From positions 2,633,659 to 2,697,658 of the forward strand of contig CP091278.1 of NCBI GenBank assembly GCA_021650895.1: 64,000 nucleotides of DNA, in the 5' to 3' direction. Made by a program: the position numbers and the translations under genes. Below, one piece after another: positions 6,705 to 59,180 of this stretch; position 1 is the stretch's first letter; the number at the start of each line of letters is the position of its first letter. Source of the DNA: Candidatus Jettenia sp. (lineage in GTDB: Bacteria; Planctomycetota; Brocadiia; Brocadiales; Brocadiaceae). The notes below the pieces were generated by a model, which was given only the letters and a program-made list of their open reading frames with translations, did no database searches and was not told the DNA's origin.

Positions 6705-9359
6705 ATGGAAATGATGTCTGATAAGATTGAGCACGCTATCGAACATGCAAAACATTTAATGCCTGACCAAGGCCCACTCCCATTCTTCGTTCACCACAAT
6801 ACCATTCATCACTTTGAAACATACGATTTCTTTGAAGGCGTTAAACAGGCGGGACGTACTTATGGCGCCAAAGCGTTTATGTCCGAAGAAGAGTTTCTCC
6901 TGGCGTTTGAACGGGGCCGTATTACGGCAGACATTCTTAAAAAGAAGATCAAAGAATATATCGAACATCATAAGCTTACTATTCAACCGGATCTTCTGTT
7001 TAAGCTTATGGCGGAGAAGCCTCATGTTCGCCCGGCACCGGATGCGAGAATTCTACAGTTTGTTAATAACACTGCGTATCAACGCCCAGGTTATTATAAA
7101 GAGGCGATTCAAATCACCCACAATCGGGACATCGACGAGTTGATACAGCCGATTCTCTTTAGGTTTTTATCATCCTATTTCGACTTCGGCCTGGCCTATT
7201 GGCCCATGCCAAACCGGGAGAAAGGGATGTGGCAGTGCTTTTGTGAAATTTACTCGAAAAGCAGTTTCTTCAGCACAAAATTTCTCAAGACCCTGAAACG
7301 AATCGTTACCGGGATGAAACGGTACCGGTACGAAGAGGCTATCGCACTTCTGCTTCAACGTTTGGCTATCCCCGAGGAACACATGGACGGCTATATATTC
7401 CACACCCTGTACCGCTACAAGGGATGGACAGGAACTATTAAATCCCTGGAAACGATGCCGGAATGGATTCCGATCTTGGATGTCAAGGCAGCTTTTAAAG
7501 AGGTTATTCCCATTATTCTCGTCCTTGAACTCGCGGCTATCGAATCCATATGCGACCTACGAGACTTGAAGATTCCGGTCTATAAACCGGAGCCTTTATA
7601 TGACCCGTATTTTGTCGCCTCTATCGTAAGCGCTTTGGGTATCGAAAATAGCAAAGAATTTCCCAAAGAGGTCATACAATTCACCGACGAAAATCGCTTG
7701 GAGATTTGGCAGCGCGCCTACGAAGATACTCTCTACAATCAATTTCTTTCGGCATATCGACAGTGCGCTATTGAGGAAAAACCAAACTACAGGCCTTCGA
7801 ATTATCAGGTCTTCACTTGCATCGATGAACGAGAGGAATCTTTTCGCCGCCATCTGGAACAAATCGACCCTGGTGCCGAGACCTTGAGTGCGGCAGGACA
7901 TTTTGCCCTCGATATGAAGTTTAAGAGTGCATCGGATAAACATTACCGCAAGATGTGCCCACATCCTCTGGTAACACCATCGGTGAAAGTCTATGAAGAG
8001 GCAATAAGGCTTGAAGATGCAATGCCCAAAAAACTGCAGCTTTACGGAGAAGTGCAATGGGCGATTACACAAGCATCCAAAACCCTTTTTGGAAGCTTTG
8101 TCCACACGATTTTCAGCGGTCTCCTTAATTTTTTTCCCTATATCCTGGACGTTCTCTCGCCGAAGTACAGTTCTAAGCTGCGTCGGTATCTGGCAGCCCA
8201 CGAGCCTAAGACACGGTTAGTTTACAAAAAGGAAAATAATGAGAATGAAAAAGGATGGGATCTGCCAGCCCGGATTGCTCGCGCCACGGCGATACTGAAA
8301 GGCGCCGGGTTATCGGATAACTTTTCGCCCTATGTGTTCATACTTGGTCACGGATCGAGTAGCCTCAATAATCCTCATGAAGCTGCTCACGATTGTGGGG
8401 CGTGTGCGGGGGGACGCGGTGCACCCAACGGACGCCTCTTTGCAGCCATTTGCAACGAACCTGAAGTTCGTGCAGGGCTGGCGAAAAACGGTATAATTAT
8501 TCCCGATTGGACTCGATTCATTGGCGGATATCACAACACCTGCAGCGATGAGGTCCTTTTTTTTGACCTTCCCGATTCCATAGAACCGCGTCTGCAAAGA
8601 CATATCGATACAATTCGCCGTGCAGCGGCGTTAAATGCAAAAGAGCGCTGCAGACGATTTGATGAGGTCAAAACGAACCAATCGGAAAAGGTATTTGCCG
8701 ATTACGCCCATGGACGGGCAATGGATCTTACCCAGCCGAGGCCTGAATATGGCCACTGCACCAATGCAATTGCCATTGTAGGACCGAGATATCTAACGCA
8801 AAACCTTTTCTTAGACAGGCGTGCGTTTTTGATTTCCTATAATTATAAGGTGGATCCTGAAGCAAAGTTCCTGAGAGGTATTCTCGGTGCGGTTGGGCCG
8901 GTATGTTCAGGAATTAACCTTGAGTACTATTTTAGCTTTATCGACAACGAGCATTACGGCTGCGGTACCAAACTGCCCCACAACATCACTTCCTTGTTGG
9001 GTGTGATGAACGGACACCTTAGCGACCTGCTATTAGGATTACCGTGGCAAATGGTTGAAGTTCACGAACCCGCACGATTGATTTTAGTTGTTTGCTGCAA
9101 GGTCGAGACGATGGAAACTATCCTCGGAGAGGCTTTTGGATATACCGGACAACCCGGGCACTTCCAGTGTTTGGTAAAACATAATTGGATTACCCTCGCA
9201 GTTCATGATCAGGATCAGGAAAAGCTCTTTTTGTGGGAAGGCGGGTTGGAAGGCCGGTTTGTACCATTTGAAGAGACGGCGGATGTTCCCGAATATAAGG
9301 GTAACGATCCACGGTTTTTCCTCGAACAAGACCATCTTTTGTTTGGTAAAATTACATAG
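6705..9359 (+). CDS. dabA: Inorganic carbon accumulation subunit DabA (DUF2309)
   Basis: DabA is the cytoplasmic, zinc-containing, carbonic-anhydrase-like subunit of the DAB complex. With DabB it is proposed to couple an ion gradient to one-way hydration of CO2, trapping bicarbonate. The 884-residue protein has the four zinc/active-site positions of the family with the right spacing: C372 and D374 in FTCIDERE, H549 in LGHGSS, C564 in DCGACAGGRGAPNGR. Start choice among ATGs at 6705, 6711 and 6714 is uncertain, since no strong ribosome binding site is seen. It ends 9 bases before dabB. Codons are richer in G and C than in adjacent genes, which hints at acquisition. The family is also called UPF0753. 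Confidence 0.93.
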   Translation: MEMMSDKIEHAIEHAKHLMPDQGPLPFFVHHNTIHHFETYDFFEGVKQAGRTYGAKAFMSEEEFLLAFERGRITADILKKKIKEYIEHHKLTIQPDLLFKLMAEKPHVRPAPDARILQFVNNTAYQRPGYYKEAIQITHNRDIDELIQPILFRFLSSYFDFGLAYWPMPNREKGMWQCFCEIYSKSSFFSTKFLKTLKRIVTGMKRYRYEEAIALLLQRLAIPEEHMDGYIFHTLYRYKGWTGTIKSLETMPEWIPILDVKAAFKEVIPIILVLELAAIESICDLRDLKIPVYKPEPLYDPYFVASIVSALGIENSKEFPKEVIQFTDENRLEIWQRAYEDTLYNQFLSAYRQCAIEEKPNYRPSNYQVFTCIDEREESFRRHLEQIDPGAETLSAAGHFALDMKFKSASDKHYRKMCPHPLVTPSVKVYEEAIRLEDAMPKKLQLYGEVQWAITQASKTLFGSFVHTIFSGLLNFFPYILDVLSPKYSSKLRRYLAAHEPKTRLVYKKENNENEKGWDLPARIARATAILKGAGLSDNFSPYVFILGHGSSSLNNPHEAAHDCGACAGGRGAPNGRLFAAICNEPEVRAGLAKNGIIIPDWTRFIGGYHNTCSDEVLFFDLPDSIEPRLQRHIDTIRRAAALNAKERCRRFDEVKTNQSEKVFADYAHGRAMDLTQPRPEYGHCTNAIAIVGPRYLTQNLFLDRRAFLISYNYKVDPEAKFLRGILGAVGPVCSGINLEYYFSFIDNEHYGCGTKLPHNITSLLGVMNGHLSDLLLGLPWQMVEVHEPARLILVVCCKVETMETILGEAFGYTGQPGHFQCLVKHNWITLAVHDQDQEKLFLWEGGLEGRFVPFEETADVPEYKGNDPRFFLEQDHLLFGKIT

Positions 9360-53282: not shown

Positions 53283-53700
53283 TTTTAAGATTGTTAATGC
53301 AATTTGGATTCTACCTGAACTAAGATAATTATTTCAAGATAAAAAGGCGATTTCTGATCTTTGAAGATATTGGAGATACTAAATCCTTGTCTGGTTTTAG
53401 TCTAAATAAACAATCGTTTACTACGTGTTTTGATATGTTTTGATATTCTCCTGTCTATCAAGCATTCTCAAGGCTTTGAAGGGAATTTCATTCTTGTGTG
53501 TTTGTATCGTTTCTGATATGTTTTTAGGACAAGGTACGAACGTGATGCGAACGAGATTCGACATGAATTCTTAAGGGAAAAATTTTTATAGTTTGAAATG
53601 GTGGGATGGGGGGAGGGAGCGGATTTGAAAAATTTGTAAATTTTTTAATATAGAGTCCCAATCATCTCACAAGGACAAAAACTTAACAGGAGACAAAATC
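53283..53700. other. Intergenic stretch left of the integrative element
   Basis: No gene is seen. It contains a 10-bp tandem repeat (GTTTTGATAT twice, 53427-53446), a short GTACGAACGTG that recurs near 59082, and a purine tract rich in G runs (53600-53622). Confidence 0.35.
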
Positions 53701-54148
53701 ATGCCAAAGGTAAAGTTAGCTGATCCAGAATTAAGGTAGATATTGCCAGGTGTTTAGCTGGAGGTGAGTCACAAGGGAGTATCGCCAGGGGATACGGTGT
53801 TTGTCAATAAAGGATCTCAGCAATATCCCAAGAAGACGAGGTGCGGGAGCTTATTAAGCAAGAGTGTCTGAGGCTGTTAGAGATAGCTCCGGATGCGGTG
53901 CGGAATGTAGTTATTTAGTAAAGGAAATGCCAGCAATCCCTAAGGCGGATGCAAGACAACGGGAGCTAGCATATAAGGCCACGCAAGATGTGTTAAAGGC
54001 CGTAGGTATTTTTCCTAATCCGCAGGTGAACATTCTAGCTGTACACCAAAGCGGCAGTGAAAAAGAATCTGTGATAGAGCCAAGAGTCTTTGATATAATT
54101 CAAAGGGTAACGGCTAGCATGCTGGAATTGCCTAAAGAGGAACAGTAA
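53701..54148 (+). pseudogene. Phage terminase small-subunit-like relic
   Basis: The ATG at 53701 follows AGGAG. The frame must be changed near 53735, has an internal TAA near 53808, and shifts again near 53910. The pieces then read as DIARCLAGGESQGSIARGYG (helix-turn-helix-like), DEVRELIKQECLRLLE, and AIPKADARQRELAYKATQDV with LKAVGIFP. This is the pattern of small terminase or DNA-packaging proteins. Clearly non-functional. Confidence 0.6.
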
Positions 54149-54410
54149 CACGATAATTAATAATTGTGTTACTGAGACTATGTACTGTACGAAAAACATG
54201 CATACTATATATTGTATAGGTATGATTGCCAAGACTGCCAAGTTAATGGCGATTAGGTGGGATTTCTGAATCCGCACTCACGCCAGATGAAATAAAAATA
54301 CCTTGAATGGTGAAATTTTCATAGTAACATACATAAAAAAGATACTTAGAATGAGTCATAGTCATTACAAGATAGTAATAAAGTGGGTGTTTTTATACAC
54401 CTGCAATAGG

Positions 54411-54451
54411 GGCTAGCTACAGACGCTATGACCGTTTGTAGTTAGCCTTTT
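54411..54451 (+). terminator. Intrinsic terminator
   Basis: GGCTAGCTACAGAC (54411-54424) pairs with GTTTGTAGTTAGCC (54434-54447) with two mismatches, followed by TTTT. It ends the transcript of the terminase-like relic; a second small hairpin lies at 54385-54401. Confidence 0.6.
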
Positions 54452-54474
54452 GTGTTTCAGGGGGAAAAGAGATT

Positions 54475-54727
54475 ATGAAGGGGATTATAAAGCACACCTT
54501 AAAGAAGGCAACGCTTGAGTTAGTCTACCAGGTAGTGGACGAAAGAACTACAGAACTTATCCAGAAGATTGACGAAGTAAAAAAGAAACAAGAGGATGAT
54601 TTCCGATACCTTGTCCAGAAGATTGATACCGATATAGGCCAAAGTAAGGAATGAAATTAGCCAATTGAATCAACGAATTGACACCATTATTCAAATGCTG
54701 ATGACGCTAAGAACAGACCAGAAGTAA
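54475..54727 (+). pseudogene. Short coiled-coil protein, frameshifted
   Basis: The ATG at 54475 opens a charged helix (MKGIIKHTLKKATLELVYQV, with a repeated LIQKIDEV/LVQKIDTD heptad). It stops at TGA 54652-54654. Removing one A at 54641-54643 lets it continue as RNEISQLNQRIDTII to TAA 54725-54727, about 84 residues. Probably an element accessory protein broken by a one-base insertion. Confidence 0.5.
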
Positions 54728-54833
54728 CACATTTCACGATTAAGGGGATAGCTTGACGAAGCGAAAAGCCGTATTCTCCAACGGTTTCCCCTTAATTTTT
54801 ATTCTTGGAGAGTTATTTAGGAGAGATGACAAG

Positions 54834-55574
54834 ATGGGAACTCTAAGCGAACTTAAGCTTGATGAAATTGATAGCGAAATAATAAGACTGGAAAAACAAC
54901 TTCCATATTGGAAGTTAATGGCCGAAATATGGAGTTTAGGAAGCCAACTTAATAGCGTTAAAGGTGAGCTTGTTCCCGATGATTGGACACCAGAAACAAG
55001 TTGTTTGCAATCAGATAACACGGGAGTGATCGGACATTATTAAATTTTTCTCTATAAACAAATACGTGAAAAAGAAAAGGAATTACACGAAGCAGGCTTT
55101 GGACTTTCTAGTTACGGAGAGGCTTTATTTAAGATTGAATTTATCAGGGAAGAAATAAGCAGGTTATATAACATAAGACGCAAAAAATTGGAGTTAGAAG
55201 ATACACCAGAGGAGAAGCAGGAGCAAGCCAACGGGCAAGGTGTGCCTGTAGCAAATCCCATAAAAGTATCATTCGATGAAACAAATTATATAGTTACTAT
55301 TAATGGTAAAGAATATCTGTTTAGGGATAAGGGAAAACGTCAACTCTCTAAGGAATACAAGTTTTTTGAATTGTTATACAGAAATCAGTATAGATATATA
55401 AAGAAGGATGAAATCAAAAAAAAGCTAGGATTGGGAACAAGTGCAGATCAACAAGTATTTAACACAAAATCAAATTTGAGCAAAATAATTAAAGATAGTT
55501 CCTATGAGATCGAAAATCAAAAAGAGTATGACAACAGGGGCGGCTATAAATTGCGTTTAAAGCAACAAAATTAG
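54834..55574 (+). pseudogene. Winged-helix-like protein with in-frame TAA
   Basis: One reading frame runs from ATG 54834 (AGGAGAG 8 bases upstream) to TAG 55572-55574 with a single TAA at 55041-55043. The N-terminal part is a helical, charged domain (SELKLDEIDSEIIRLEKQL). Beyond the stop the helix continues (QIREKEKELHEAGFGLSSYG) and the last 100 residues look like an OmpR-type winged helix (YKFFELLYRNQYRYIKKDEI, ending RGGYKLRL). The continuity on both sides of the TAA argues for a nonsense mutation, not for two genes; the second half could still be made from TTG 55188. Confidence 0.6.
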
Positions 55575-55626
55575 AATCTAGTTAGAATTTTGTTAGAATC
55601 CATTTAAGGATATTAGAAGTCATAAT

Positions 55627-55669
55627 AAGGCTGTAGGTCTTGTAAATCAAGGCTTACGGCCTTTTTTGT
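55627..55669 (+). terminator. Intrinsic terminator
   Basis: AAGGCTGTAGGTCTTG (55627-55642) pairs with CAAGGCTTACGGCCTT (55648-55663) using G-T pairs, with a six-T tail. It lies 53 bases after the winged-helix gene. Confidence 0.75.
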
Positions 55670-55765
55670 TTGAATGTTTTCGGAGCTAAAAAATTAGAAT
55701 CCTAGTTAGGATACTTTCCAGGAATTTGGATATTATTTATCTCAATTTTTCTTGGAGAGTAGCAA

Positions 55766-55936
55766 ATGAAAGAAGGTAACAAATTTTATAGCATAGTAAT
55801 TCCAGTAAACCAGCACGAAAGGATGGTGCAATTTAGCCGAAAAAACGGAATCAGTGTGGCCAAGCTCGTTAGGCGGGGAATCGACTTGATGCTTGAGGGC
55901 TGCAAAGATGAAAACTGCAAAGTTGATCGTGTGTAG
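55766..55936 (+). CDS. Ribbon-helix-helix DNA-binding protein
   Basis: A 56-residue protein from ATG 55766 with GGAGAG upstream. It has the RHH (CopG/Arc) pattern: a beta strand FYSIVIPV, then helix MVQFSRKNG, turn ISVAKLVRRGIDLML. The tail ends with two cysteines (GCKDENCK). RHH proteins of this size repress phage or plasmid promoters; here it lies directly upstream of the primase gene, whose expression it may control. Confidence 0.65.
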   Translation: MKEGNKFYSIVIPVNQHERMVQFSRKNGISVAKLVRRGIDLMLEGCKDENCKVDRV

Positions 55937-55981
55937 AATGTGCGGATATTGCCAGGATGCGTTATCGGCGGAGGTGCAAGA

Positions 55982-58131
55982 ATGAACGAAACAGCTACTT
56001 TGTCAGATGTTGCGGTCAGTTTATATCAAAATTCATTCGATAAGGCAGGTAAAAACAGCAATCTTTGTGAGATCATTGACGGCATTAAAAGCGGAAAATG
56101 GCAAAAACAAGTTGAGGCAATCAGGAATGAAAAAGATAAAGCCAAACGAAGCCAGTTAAAGCAAAGACTTCCTGCATTTACTCCAAGCGGTCACTTCCTG
56201 GAACGCAACGTCAACGGGCTACAAAGCCATAGCGGGAGGATTGCTATAGATTTTGATGTGCAGGACAATCCCAAATTCGAGTCAGAGCTTGGGGCGGCAT
56301 GGGATATCTTACAGAAAGACAAATTCACAGAATATGCTTCTCTGTCCGTCTCAGGGCAGGGGCTTTCGTGATCGTTAGGATTGACGGCGACCAGCATGCG
56401 GAAAGCTTTGAGTTTCTCCAGGCATATTACCAAGAGGAATATGGGCTTCACATTGATAAAGCGTGTCGAGACGTGTCCAGGCTGCGCTTTGTCTCTTACG
56501 ACCCTGACCTTTTTCACAATCCTAATTCCGAGATGGTGCTTTTGCCTGTTAAGGAGTCCACACAGGATGCAGGGCATGTCCCAGGCCTTCCCAGCACACA
56601 CAACGGATTGGCAGATGCGGAAATTATGGAGTCCATTATCAGGAGCGGCAAATTGATCGGCGATGATTCTTATCAAGAATGGCTGCGAATTGGACTTGCA
56701 CTAGCGAACACATTCGGCGAGTCAGGCAGAGAATACTTCCAGGCATTGAGTAGCAGAAGTTCTAAATATGATTCATTGGAATGCGATAAGAAGTTTACCA
56801 ATTGTCTTCGGACTAATCGAGGTGAAGTCACGTTTGCCAGTATTGTGCATATAGCCAGGAGTGCGGGTATCGATGTTTCATCCAAGCGCATGACTATTGA
56901 TGAACGGCCGCCAGCATTCAACCTCGCAGACTTGGGGAACGCTAAGCGGCTTGTTGCGCATTATGGCGACAAGATTCGTTACTGCTTTGCATGGAAGAAA
57001 TGGCTGATTTGGGACGGGAAGACCTGGTCTATCGATGATAACGGCCAAATTGTACGGCTTGCTAAGGAAACTGTTAAGCGTATCTATCAAGAAGCGTCCA
57101 TTGCTTCGGACGAGTTAAGAGAGAAAATCGGTAAGTGGGCTATCAAATCAGAGGAAGAGAAAAAGATTAAGGCTATGATCTCCCTTGTGCAAAGCGAAGA
57201 CGGCATCCCAATCTCACCAGGTGAGTTAGATGGTGATCCATTCTTGCTGAATTGTGCAAATGGGACAATAAATTTACGGATTGGTGAATTGAGGTCACAT
57301 AATCCGAATGACTTCATTACGAAGATGATTCCCGTTGAATTTAATCCCGATGCGGCATGCCCAACATGGCTTGAATTTCTTGAGACTATCTTTAATTTCA
57401 ATTATGACGTTATTCGCTTTCTCCAAAGGGCTGTGGAGTATTCGTTGACGGGTAGCACTTCTGAACAATGCCTTTTTCTCCTGCATGGGGGCGGCGCAAA
57501 CGGAAAGTCTACTTTCGTAAAAACTGTAATAAATTTACTGGGTGATTTTGCACAGACTGCCGATTTCGAGACGTTCTTAATCAAGAATAATGGCGATGGC
57601 ATTCGTAATGATCTTGCATGGATGAAGGGGGATTTCCTGAATAGGTCAAGCTACGCTTCCGATATTCAATCTGGCGGCTTTATGTCTGCTAGTAAAGGCC
57701 GTAATCCTTGTGCTTCATTCCGTAATGCAGTTCAAGGCTTTGATAATATTGGTGAGAGCGTGAGAGGCTTTATCGTGGAAAATTTATCTTACCAGGAATG
57801 TATTAGAAGATTTGATTCCGAGTCTAGCCTATTTTATGTCGATTGTTCCTATCACGGTAGTGAGGATTATTACGGCAAGGGAAATTTCTCACTACAAGAC
57901 CATTACAGGCTTTTGGAATTACTGCATGGTATTAGGAGTATGGCAATGGTGAGTCATTACGAATGTGATACCTATAATCAGCTATATTCAAATTGGCGCA
58001 GATACACCTTCGAGAGCTTCAAGGGAAGTAGTAAGGCGGGTGCAGGTCAGGAGAAACCGAAGACGACAGAAATATTGTATACAAACTTTGAACCTAAACT
58101 TAAAACAAGGAGCCTATTCAATGGATTATAA
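55982..58131 (+). pseudogene. Primase/helicase frameshifted and fused to D12 adenine methylase
   Basis: From ATG 55982 (GGAGGTG upstream) comes a BT4734-like primase N-terminal domain (FTPSGHFLERN, GRIAIDFDVQDN). A one-base loss near 56364 (CTTTCG) causes a stop at 56369-56371; the other frame continues FVIVRIDGDQHAESFEF. A D5/P4-type domain and the helicase Walker A GGGANGKSTFVKT (near 57487) follow. After NGDGIRNDLAWMKG (about 57630) the frame runs without a break into the C-terminal part of a Dam-like D12 methylase (FLNRSSYASDIQSGGF, VENLSYQECIRRFD, YGKGNFSLQDHYRL). Its DPPY motif reads DCSY, so the methylase part is inactive. The helicase lacks its Walker B and later motifs. Confidence 0.75.
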
Positions 58132-58204
58132 TGATTTCTTATGCTTTGTTGTATGCTTTGAATTATTACGGCTAATAATCTTTGGATTGCATTGGGCGTG
58201 TTAA
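58121..58204 (+). CDS. Tiny hydrophobic peptide
   Basis: A 27-codon frame, MDYNDFLCFVVCFELLRLII to TGC-TAA end, with a strong AAGGAG about 9 bases before the ATG at 58121. It overlaps the end of the methylase fragment by 11 bases, typical of packed phage genes. One membrane helix. Function unknown. Confidence 0.4.
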   Translation: MDYNDFLCFVVCFELLRLIIFGLHWAC

Positions 58205-58305
58205 CTATGTTTGCGCTTTTCTTGATATTCCAGAATCCATGATAGGCCTAGAAAGAAAAGTGCAATAAAGACTATACCACCAAGCAGAATATAAAGGGTA
58301 TCCAT
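58201..58305 (-). CDS. Small single-span membrane protein
   Basis: 34 residues from ATG 58305: a strongly hydrophobic helix (YILLGGIVFIALFFLGL), then WILEYQEKRKHS, a basic tail, giving N-out/C-in topology by the positive-inside rule. AAGGAAAA lies upstream. It begins one base after the stop of the 58465 gene, so the two form a coupled pair. The size and topology resemble phage holin-like or spanin-like peptides, but this is only a guess. Confidence 0.45.
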   Translation of the reverse strand: MDTLYILLGGIVFIALFFLGLSWILEYQEKRKHS

Positions 58306-58306
58306 A

Positions 58307-58465
58307 CTATTTTTCCTTATTTTGTGGAATGGTAAAGAATGCAATTACAAGCACAATCAAGGCAGTTACTATAACACTTATTGTTGTCGACATGGTAACT
58401 TTTTCGGTAAGTATCTTACCAATTAAAGCAATAGTAATTAAGTATTTTACAATCTTAATTAACAT
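58307..58465 (-). CDS. Small two-span membrane protein
   Basis: 52 residues from ATG 58465 with AGGTAAA close upstream. Two hydrophobic stretches (LIKIVKYLITIALIG and TTISVIVTALIVLVIAFFTI) flank a short ILTEKVTM linker, and the C-terminus is basic (PQNKEK). First gene of a minus-strand pair inside the integrative element, pointing away from the integrase. Unknown function. Confidence 0.45.
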   Translation of the reverse strand: MLIKIVKYLITIALIGKILTEKVTMSTTISVIVTALIVLVIAFFTIPQNKEK

Positions 58466-58620
58466 TTTACCTATTTCACGGCGACGGTCGTCGTTTTTTC
58501 ATAGTTCACCAAACATGTAAGCGTATTATACACCAGATACAAACAGATAGCAAAAGATAAAGAGAGATAAGAATAAATCAAGAATATCCTTAGAATACCT
58601 TTGCAAACAGACAAACGGCA

Positions 58621-59049
58621 GTGAATGTTATTATAAAACATTTAAGGAGCTTTGAGATTTCCAGACTCAATATAGTTCTAATACAAAGATTTTGTACAGA
58701 TGTATTGCAGATAGATAAGGTGAAAGCATCAACGGTGAATCAATATTGTTCTATCCTTAAGCTTATCCTTGATATGGCTATGCAGGAAAGAGTTATTAAC
58801 ACGAATCCTATGCAAGGCTTTAAACGGCTAAAGGTGAATGAAACTTCCAAGAGGATATTGACGAATGAGGAAATAAGGACAATTCTTGACGAATCTATAC
58901 TACCTATAGGAAGTGATTGCATGGCTGTTCTTATTGGTATGTTTACGGGTCTTCGTCTGATGGATGTTATAGGGCTTGAATGGTCAAACATAGATTTTAA
59001 TAACGCTAAGATTACTTTAATACCACAGAAAACAGGAAGAAGCTATTGA
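58621..59049 (+). pseudogene. Truncated tyrosine recombinase (phage integrase)
   Basis: The frame (GTG 58621) holds the core-binding domain (KASTVNQYCSILKLILDMAM, NPMQGFKRLKVNETSKRILT) and the start of the catalytic domain with the first arginine (FTGLRLMDVIGLEWSNID), then stops after PQKTGRSY. The HxxR and tyrosine of the active site are missing, as is the extreme N-terminus. It marks the right end of the element and cannot excise it. Confidence 0.8.
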
Positions 59050-59180
59050 GAAGTTCACAAATCACATGCTTTCTTTGCAAGAGTACGAACGTGGTACGAA
59101 TCAGAAAATAGCATAGTATCATAAGTTACGATATTATAAGAGTTATGTAAAACGTGATTATTTGCGATGAAATAATTCCC

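What the first reader, a model, noticed from the sequence alone, without database searches (positions are those of the whole stretch)
57600..57680. In-frame fusion of phage primase-helicase to Dam-like methylase
The helicase stops after its Walker A region (NGDGIRNDLAWMKG) and continues without a stop into a D12 methylase C-terminal part. The likely cause is a deletion between two genes of the element, leaving a chimeric 590-codon frame. The methylase motif DPPY is DCSY, so any product would be inert or dominant-negative.
Basis: partly seen in the sequence, partly recalled or inferred. Interest (0 to 1): 0.5.

Follow-up and report, generated by a model that had tools for sequence, protein, structure and literature searches.

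The report
Dead helicase–methylase fusion pseudogene
Two genes of a decayed mobile DNA element were accidentally joined when the DNA between them was lost, leaving a long frame that very probably does nothing; it is an ordinary chimeric pseudogene, found only in this genome among the collections searched.

Summary
Window 56299-58131 (+) is one open frame of 610 codons joining the front of a P4/D5-type primase-helicase to the back of a Dam/D12 adenine methylase. The joint lies between residues 444 and 446 (57630 | 57634).

One sibling element in the same genome (L015) and five loci of relatives carry both genes separately. The fusion keeps 128 of 304 positions of the P4 helicase C-terminal profile and lacks the methylase SAM-binding motif. 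No second copy was found in 59 related genomes, a phylum sample of 392, or the phage, plasmid, named-genome and viral searches.

The terminase-like gene and integrase of the same 5.8-kb element are broken too. Two congeners have the site empty, so insertion and decay look recent.

DCSY is only half degenerate: the two relatives nearest in that region have DCPY.

Verdict: an ordinary chimeric pseudogene made by deletion or recombination. The more interesting side observation is the element family: small, with integrase, primase and possibly terminase-small-subunit-like genes, and in-gene domain swaps.

The parts
53404..59175 (+). Degraded integrative element (about 5.8 kb) that holds the fusion; AAATAA at both edges (53404-53409, 59170-59175; six bases, read by eye)
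   Evidence: Flanks are contiguous in the 2 other genomes held of the genus, which have the site empty; collinear with sibling L015 3647-13566
53701..54148 (+). Remnant of a possible terminase-small-subunit-like gene, broken by two 1-nt losses and an in-frame TAA
   Evidence: Alignment to the open L015 3946-4395; L015 protein vs phrog_2538 terminase small subunit E 0.0012 (weak)
55982..56371 (+). N-terminal primase fragment: ancestral start, 129 codons, premature stop
   Evidence: front half of BT4734-like_N
56363..56366 (+). One-T loss (CTTT here, CTTTT in L015 and L016) that breaks the primase frame
   Evidence: alignment
56299..58131 (+). The 610-codon chimeric frame (about the first 20 codons are out of the ancestral frame)
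57487..57513 (+). Walker A motif GGGANGKST of the truncated helicase (motif name recalled)
   Evidence: sequence; aligned in A2
57631..57633 (+). Junction codon 445: helicase homology ends at 57630, methylase homology begins at 57634
57634..58131 (+). C-terminal 165 codons of a Dam/D12 methylase and its natural stop
57841..57852 (+). Catalytic motif IV position: DCSY instead of D[PACS]PY
58592..59163 (+). Integrase remnant with two deletions (junctions about 58592-58596 and 59032-59043)
   Evidence: sibling integrase of 413 aa in L015

Best explanation
A small integrative element inserted beside a comEA-like gene (name recalled), probably after this species split from its congeners, and then decayed. 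One lesion removed the DNA from just before the helicase's Walker B region (motif recalled) to the middle of the downstream methylase gene. That is about 2.5 kb if the parent was laid out like L015 and about 1.6 kb if like L045. By luck it kept the frame (one chance in three). The result is a chimeric pseudogene: half a P4/D5 primase-helicase and half a Dam-like methylase, neither with a complete active site, behind a frameshift that disconnects it from the primase start. Shown: the joint, the lesions, the separate genes in a sibling and in relatives, the empty site. Inferred: the mechanism (deletion or illegitimate recombination), the order of events, and that no product is made.
For: The joint is sharp: 7 of 11 primase frames end at 444 and 32 of 38 methylase frames begin at 446. 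In the wider searches the matches that reach the joint mostly end or begin within about 15 residues of it. Sibling L015 in the same genome has a whole primase (767 aa) and a whole methylase (367 aa) as separate genes in the same order; loci L045-L049 of relatives also have both as separate frames. The fusion lacks the last 204 primase residues of L015 and the first 111-200 methylase residues of L045, L016 and L015, motif I included. TIGR01613 is matched at 2-129 of 304. No other spanning match: 28 of 59 genomes match, own included, and only the window spans; 88 of 392 phylum genomes, same result, with up to three candidates per genome scored; 0 of 1008 phage records and 0 of 417 plasmid records reach 80% coverage; among 200 loci frames hold the helicase, 84 the methylase, 0 both. 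Further lesions lie in the primase start, terminase-like gene and integrase. The site is empty in the 2 other genomes of the genus.
Against: The frame is open for 610 codons and the helicase half keeps a coding signature (dN 0.196, dS 0.890 against L015; D5 part 0.118 and 0.674). This fits recent death but would also fit a retained protein. For the methylase half dS is saturated or not computable in most comparisons. The 1-nt frameshift could be a sequencing error; no reads were available. No close parent of the methylase half is held (best full-length match about 52% aa), so the exact breakpoint and any microhomology cannot be resolved.
Confidence: 0.94

Rival explanations
1. The joint arose by illegitimate recombination between two co-resident elements rather than by a deletion inside one element (still a pseudogene).
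For: The window element is a mosaic: left end 89% and integrase 92% identical to L015, but 58201-58600 97.5% to L016, and the middle of the methylase half nearest L045 of another genome. L015 and L016 primases share 98.3% identical DNA up to about codon 305 and then match different helicase families, so in-gene exchange has happened in this family.
Against: Gene order and orientation in L015 make one deletion sufficient; the other mosaic breakpoints can be older or younger than the fusion.
Confidence: 0.3
2. A genuine two-domain protein (helicase fused to a methylase-derived domain) with a new role, for example a DNA-binding interference factor.
For: Long open frame; coding signature in the helicase half.
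Against: No second copy; half an ATPase and no SAM site; frameshift upstream; lies inside a decayed element.
Confidence: 0.02
3. Assembly or sequencing artefact.
For: Related repeats exist in the genome; the 1-nt lesion is in a short T run.
Against: The methylase half is only 48-52% identical (aa) to L015 and L016, so it is not a collapse of them; flanks match congeners; several separate lesions. No reads were available.
Confidence: 0.03

Closest known systems
Phage/plasmid P4-family primase-helicase (TIGR01613; D5_N PF08706; PriCT_2 PF08707)
   Same: PriCT_2, D5_N and Walker A present; parts of the BT4734-like N-terminal domain on both sides of the frameshift
   Different: Ends at position 129 of 304 of TIGR01613; N-terminal domain split by a frameshift
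Dam/D12 DNA adenine methylase (PF02086, TIGR00571; solved relatives 2g1p 'DNA adenine methylase' and 2dpm DpnII methylase)
   Same: The C-terminal 165 residues align with the 32 homologous frames that start at the joint at 40-52% identity; the A1 profile matches 2g1p and 2dpm
   Different: The half with motif I is missing; motif IV is DCSY
Deletion-made chimeric pseudogenes in decaying mobile elements (general kind, recalled)
   Same: Joint seen in one genome, inside an element with several other lesions
   Different: Nothing beyond the accident of keeping the frame
PICI-type phage satellites (for the host element only; PMC6092414, passages seen)
   Same: Integrase, primase module, small size; a possible terminase-small-subunit-like gene at the far end; no match in the genome to two phage structural/packaging families
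   Different: Roughly 8-11 kb rather than the 12-15 kb criterion; terminase call weak; helper phage, regulator and att uniqueness untested

Membership tests
P4/D5 primase-helicase | Complete C-terminal helicase domain | tested here: not met
   TIGR01613 2-129 of 304 in the window against 1-304 in L015; alignment A2
P4/D5 primase-helicase | D5_N and PriCT_2 domains | tested here: met
   PF08706 E 2.6e-41, PF08707 E 5.8e-16
P4/D5 primase-helicase | Continuous reading frame from the primase start | tested here: not met
   Start 55982 stops at 56369
Dam/D12 methylase | AdoMet-binding motif I in the N-terminal half | tested here: not met
   The match begins at residue 112-201 of L045, L016 and L015; motif I lies at about residue 33-61 there
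Dam/D12 methylase | Motif IV DPPY | tested here: not met
   DCSY; 35 homologous frames covering it have 27 DPPY, 4 DAPY, 2 DCPY, 2 DSPY
Genuine helicase-methylase fusion protein | Occurs intact in several genomes | tested here: not met
   No other (limits: three candidates per genome, best 80 of 458)
PICI-type satellite (host element family) | Integrase plus replication module | tested here: met
   L015: integrase phrog_1 E 1e-55, primase phrog_6088 E 1.3e-140; the window copies are broken
PICI-type satellite (host element family) | Absence of phage structural genes | tested here: inconclusive
   No PF05065 or PF03237 match in the own genome (controls ring in 4 and 6 of 14); other capsid families not tested; L053 of another genome has a gene like a phage DNA ejection protein
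PICI-type satellite (host element family) | Terminase small subunit (carried by some PICIs) | tested here: inconclusive
   For: phrog_2538 E 0.0012 (L015), phrog_641 E 0.0048 (L016), phrog_7344 E 4.6e-5 (L053 13859-14620). Against: L053 15828-16295 and L050 582-1121, which resemble the L016 protein, hit no terminase family; phrog_2538 also hits the HTH of the L015 methylase at E 0.054; no Pfam hit for the L016 protein and no terminase among solved structures
PICI-type satellite (host element family) | Size about 12-15 kb | tested here: not met
   L015 about 9.9 kb, L017 about 8.4 kb, L016 at least about 11.3 kb
PICI-type satellite (host element family) | Mobilised by a helper phage | not testable with these tools
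   needs culture

The most novel reading that the evidence does not exclude
The dead fusion is a by-product of a real habit. These small elements of Brocadiaceae-like Planctomycetota (anammox relatives, inferred) may be phage satellites without capsid genes that diversify by joining unrelated gene halves inside their replication genes. The L015/L016 primases (98% identical DNA to about codon 305, then different helicases) would be the successful case and the window fusion a failed one.
Probability: 0.2. Interest if true: 0.4.

Novelty: new member of a known kind. Interest (0 to 1): 0.12.

Why it matters
By itself little: it is a clear example of how a mobile element dies, and a caution against annotating the 610-codon frame as a two-domain protein. 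If the host elements prove to be satellites, they would extend that kind to a group for which my four searches listed no paper with such a title; none of the listed papers was read for it beyond passages of PMC6092414.

Tried and rejected
Real fusion protein: rejected after searches of relatives, a phylum sample, phages, plasmids, named genomes and viral contigs. Three helicase matches that ran past residue 444 (L080 and L128 to 484, L152 to 491) sit in frames that match nearly the whole sibling helicase domain. Phage rows whose match ran past 444 (for example H9, to 480) were not opened.

Microhomology at the joint: 5 and 7 bases shared in two possible parent layouts, null mean 5.1, maximum 12; not above chance. 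The two integrase deletions have shared words of about 4 bases at their ends, read by eye and not tested statistically.

Terminase small subunit: weak hits in three proteins, none in two others, no solved-structure match. Structure prediction was not used: its rule names only window proteins and loci from certain tools, and the sibling loci came from the fetch from genomes.

G031, of the same family, has a contig of 1,633,127 bases, the length of JABTVC010000001.1 (Planctomycetia bacterium H5_AMX3), and another related locus is Candidatus Brocadia sp. AMX1. A Brocadiaceae-like host is an inference.

Literature. PMC6092414 and PMC3036652 were seen as passages only; all other papers as search listings only.

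Full report
What is there. ORF 56299-58131 (+) is open for 610 codons. Pfam and PHROGs find primase/helicase domains up to residue ~448 and methylase only after it. Walker A is present, but only positions 2-129 of 304 of the P4-family profile TIGR01613 are matched, against 1-304 in the sibling L015. The methylase half is the last 165 residues and the natural stop.

Where the joint is. I compared the two halves with open frames of 36 loci: three siblings of the same genome and the 33 stretches fetched from relatives, which are a selection of the places found. Seven of 11 primase frames end their match at residue 444. The other four (L016, L050, L053, L054) match only residues up to 193-228; L016 is shown to carry another helicase type, the other three were not tested for it. 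Thirty-two of 38 methylase frames start at residue 446; the other six are fragments that start further in. Codon 445 cannot be assigned. In L015 the two breakpoints are 2,501 bp apart, in L045 about 1.6 kb.

Siblings. L015 has both genes whole and separate. L016 has a whole methylase and a primase with a different helicase; the methylase of L017 is itself broken. Loci L045-L049 of relatives have a D5-type helicase frame and a methylase frame apart from each other.

Is it elsewhere. Not found. Relatives: 28 of 59 genomes match, own included, and only the window spans the joint. Phylum sample: 88 of 392 match, own and many of the same relatives included, same result, with up to three candidates per genome scored. 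Phages: 1008 records match, 0 with 80% coverage. Plasmids: 417 match, 0. Named genomes: 49 loci. Among these 200 loci, 121 frames of 150 residues or more hold the helicase, 84 the methylase, none both.

Why it is probably dead. The primase start at 55982 stops at 56369 because one T is missing relative to L015 and L016, so the 610-codon frame has no ancestral start. The helicase lacks the last 204 residues of L015, and the methylase lacks motif I. The catalytic motif is DCSY. Of 35 homologous frames that cover it, 27 have DPPY, 4 DAPY, 2 DCPY and 2 DSPY. The two DCPY frames are L045, nearest over the motif by DNA among five compared (70-78% at 57784-57903), and L069, a fragment with the highest identity of the frames that cover the motif (62.5%). 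The C was therefore probably inherited and only P to S is new. That FXGXG and DPPY are the AdoMet and catalytic motifs is stated in PMC3036652 (passages).

How old. The helicase half shows dN 0.196 and dS 0.890 against L015 (D5 part 0.118 and 0.674), as expected if it died recently. For the methylase half dS is mostly saturated. The two other genomes held of the genus have the insertion site empty with 91-97% identical flanks. The element is therefore a recent insertion, or was cleanly lost in both others.

The element. The 5.8-kb element is collinear with the ~9.9-kb sibling L015 but has lost DNA in several places. The terminase-like gene has two 1-nt losses and a stop, and the integrase has two deletions. 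It is a mosaic: L015-like ends, an L016-like stretch at 58201-58600 (97.5%) and a methylase core nearest L045. Deletion within one element is the simplest origin of the joint; recombination between elements remains possible. No direct repeat above chance marks the joint.

Context. L015 carries an integrase, a P4-type primase, an ERCC4-type nuclease and a Dam-like methylase. At the far end of L015 and L016 are genes with weak matches to terminase small subunits; the two proteins are only 17% identical, two proteins of relatives like the L016 one hit no terminase family, and HTH cross-matching may explain the hits. The own genome has no match to Phage_capsid PF05065 or Terminase_6N PF03237. This recalls phage satellites, whose criteria I took from PMC6092414 (passages), but the size criterion is not met and helper, regulator and att uniqueness are untested.

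Verdict. The feature is an ordinary chimeric pseudogene.

Noticed in passing
L015 7005-9308 and L016 9697-12171 (same genome): The two sibling primases share 98.3% identical DNA up to about codon 305 and then match different helicase families (D5/P4 type versus phrog_28855): a clean in-gene domain swap.
   Followed up: partly
L015 3946-4395, L016 14924-15412, L053 13856-14620; window 53701-54148: Possible terminase-small-subunit-like genes on the side away from the integrase; weak profile hits only, and none for L053 15828-16295 or L050 582-1121.
   Followed up: partly
L015 10595-11698, L016 7357-8421, L050 6862-7917 (also L017 9223-10119): These methylases carry an extra segment with a helix-turn-helix-like stretch (weak HTH_23 hit in L015) before the part retained in the window. 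In alignment A1 three rows have it, five full-length rows lack it and the window row is truncated; L017 shows it.
   Followed up: no
L017 (reverse coordinates 608-733 and 8874-8999): A 126-bp direct repeat, 97% identical, at both edges of the element, followed by short matches that look like a heavily deleted second copy. A related ~119-bp stretch lies at the left end of the other three elements (window 53422-53539).
   Followed up: partly
L016 3854-3950 and L017 1531-4936: A tRNA-Sec gene near one element, and SelA/SelB-like genes (recalled from the sequences, not tested) near another; the host may use selenocysteine.
   Followed up: no
L053 7429-8289: A protein that matches a phage DNA ejection protein family (phrog_4287 E 2.6e-10) beside the methylase of an element in another genome.
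   Followed up: no
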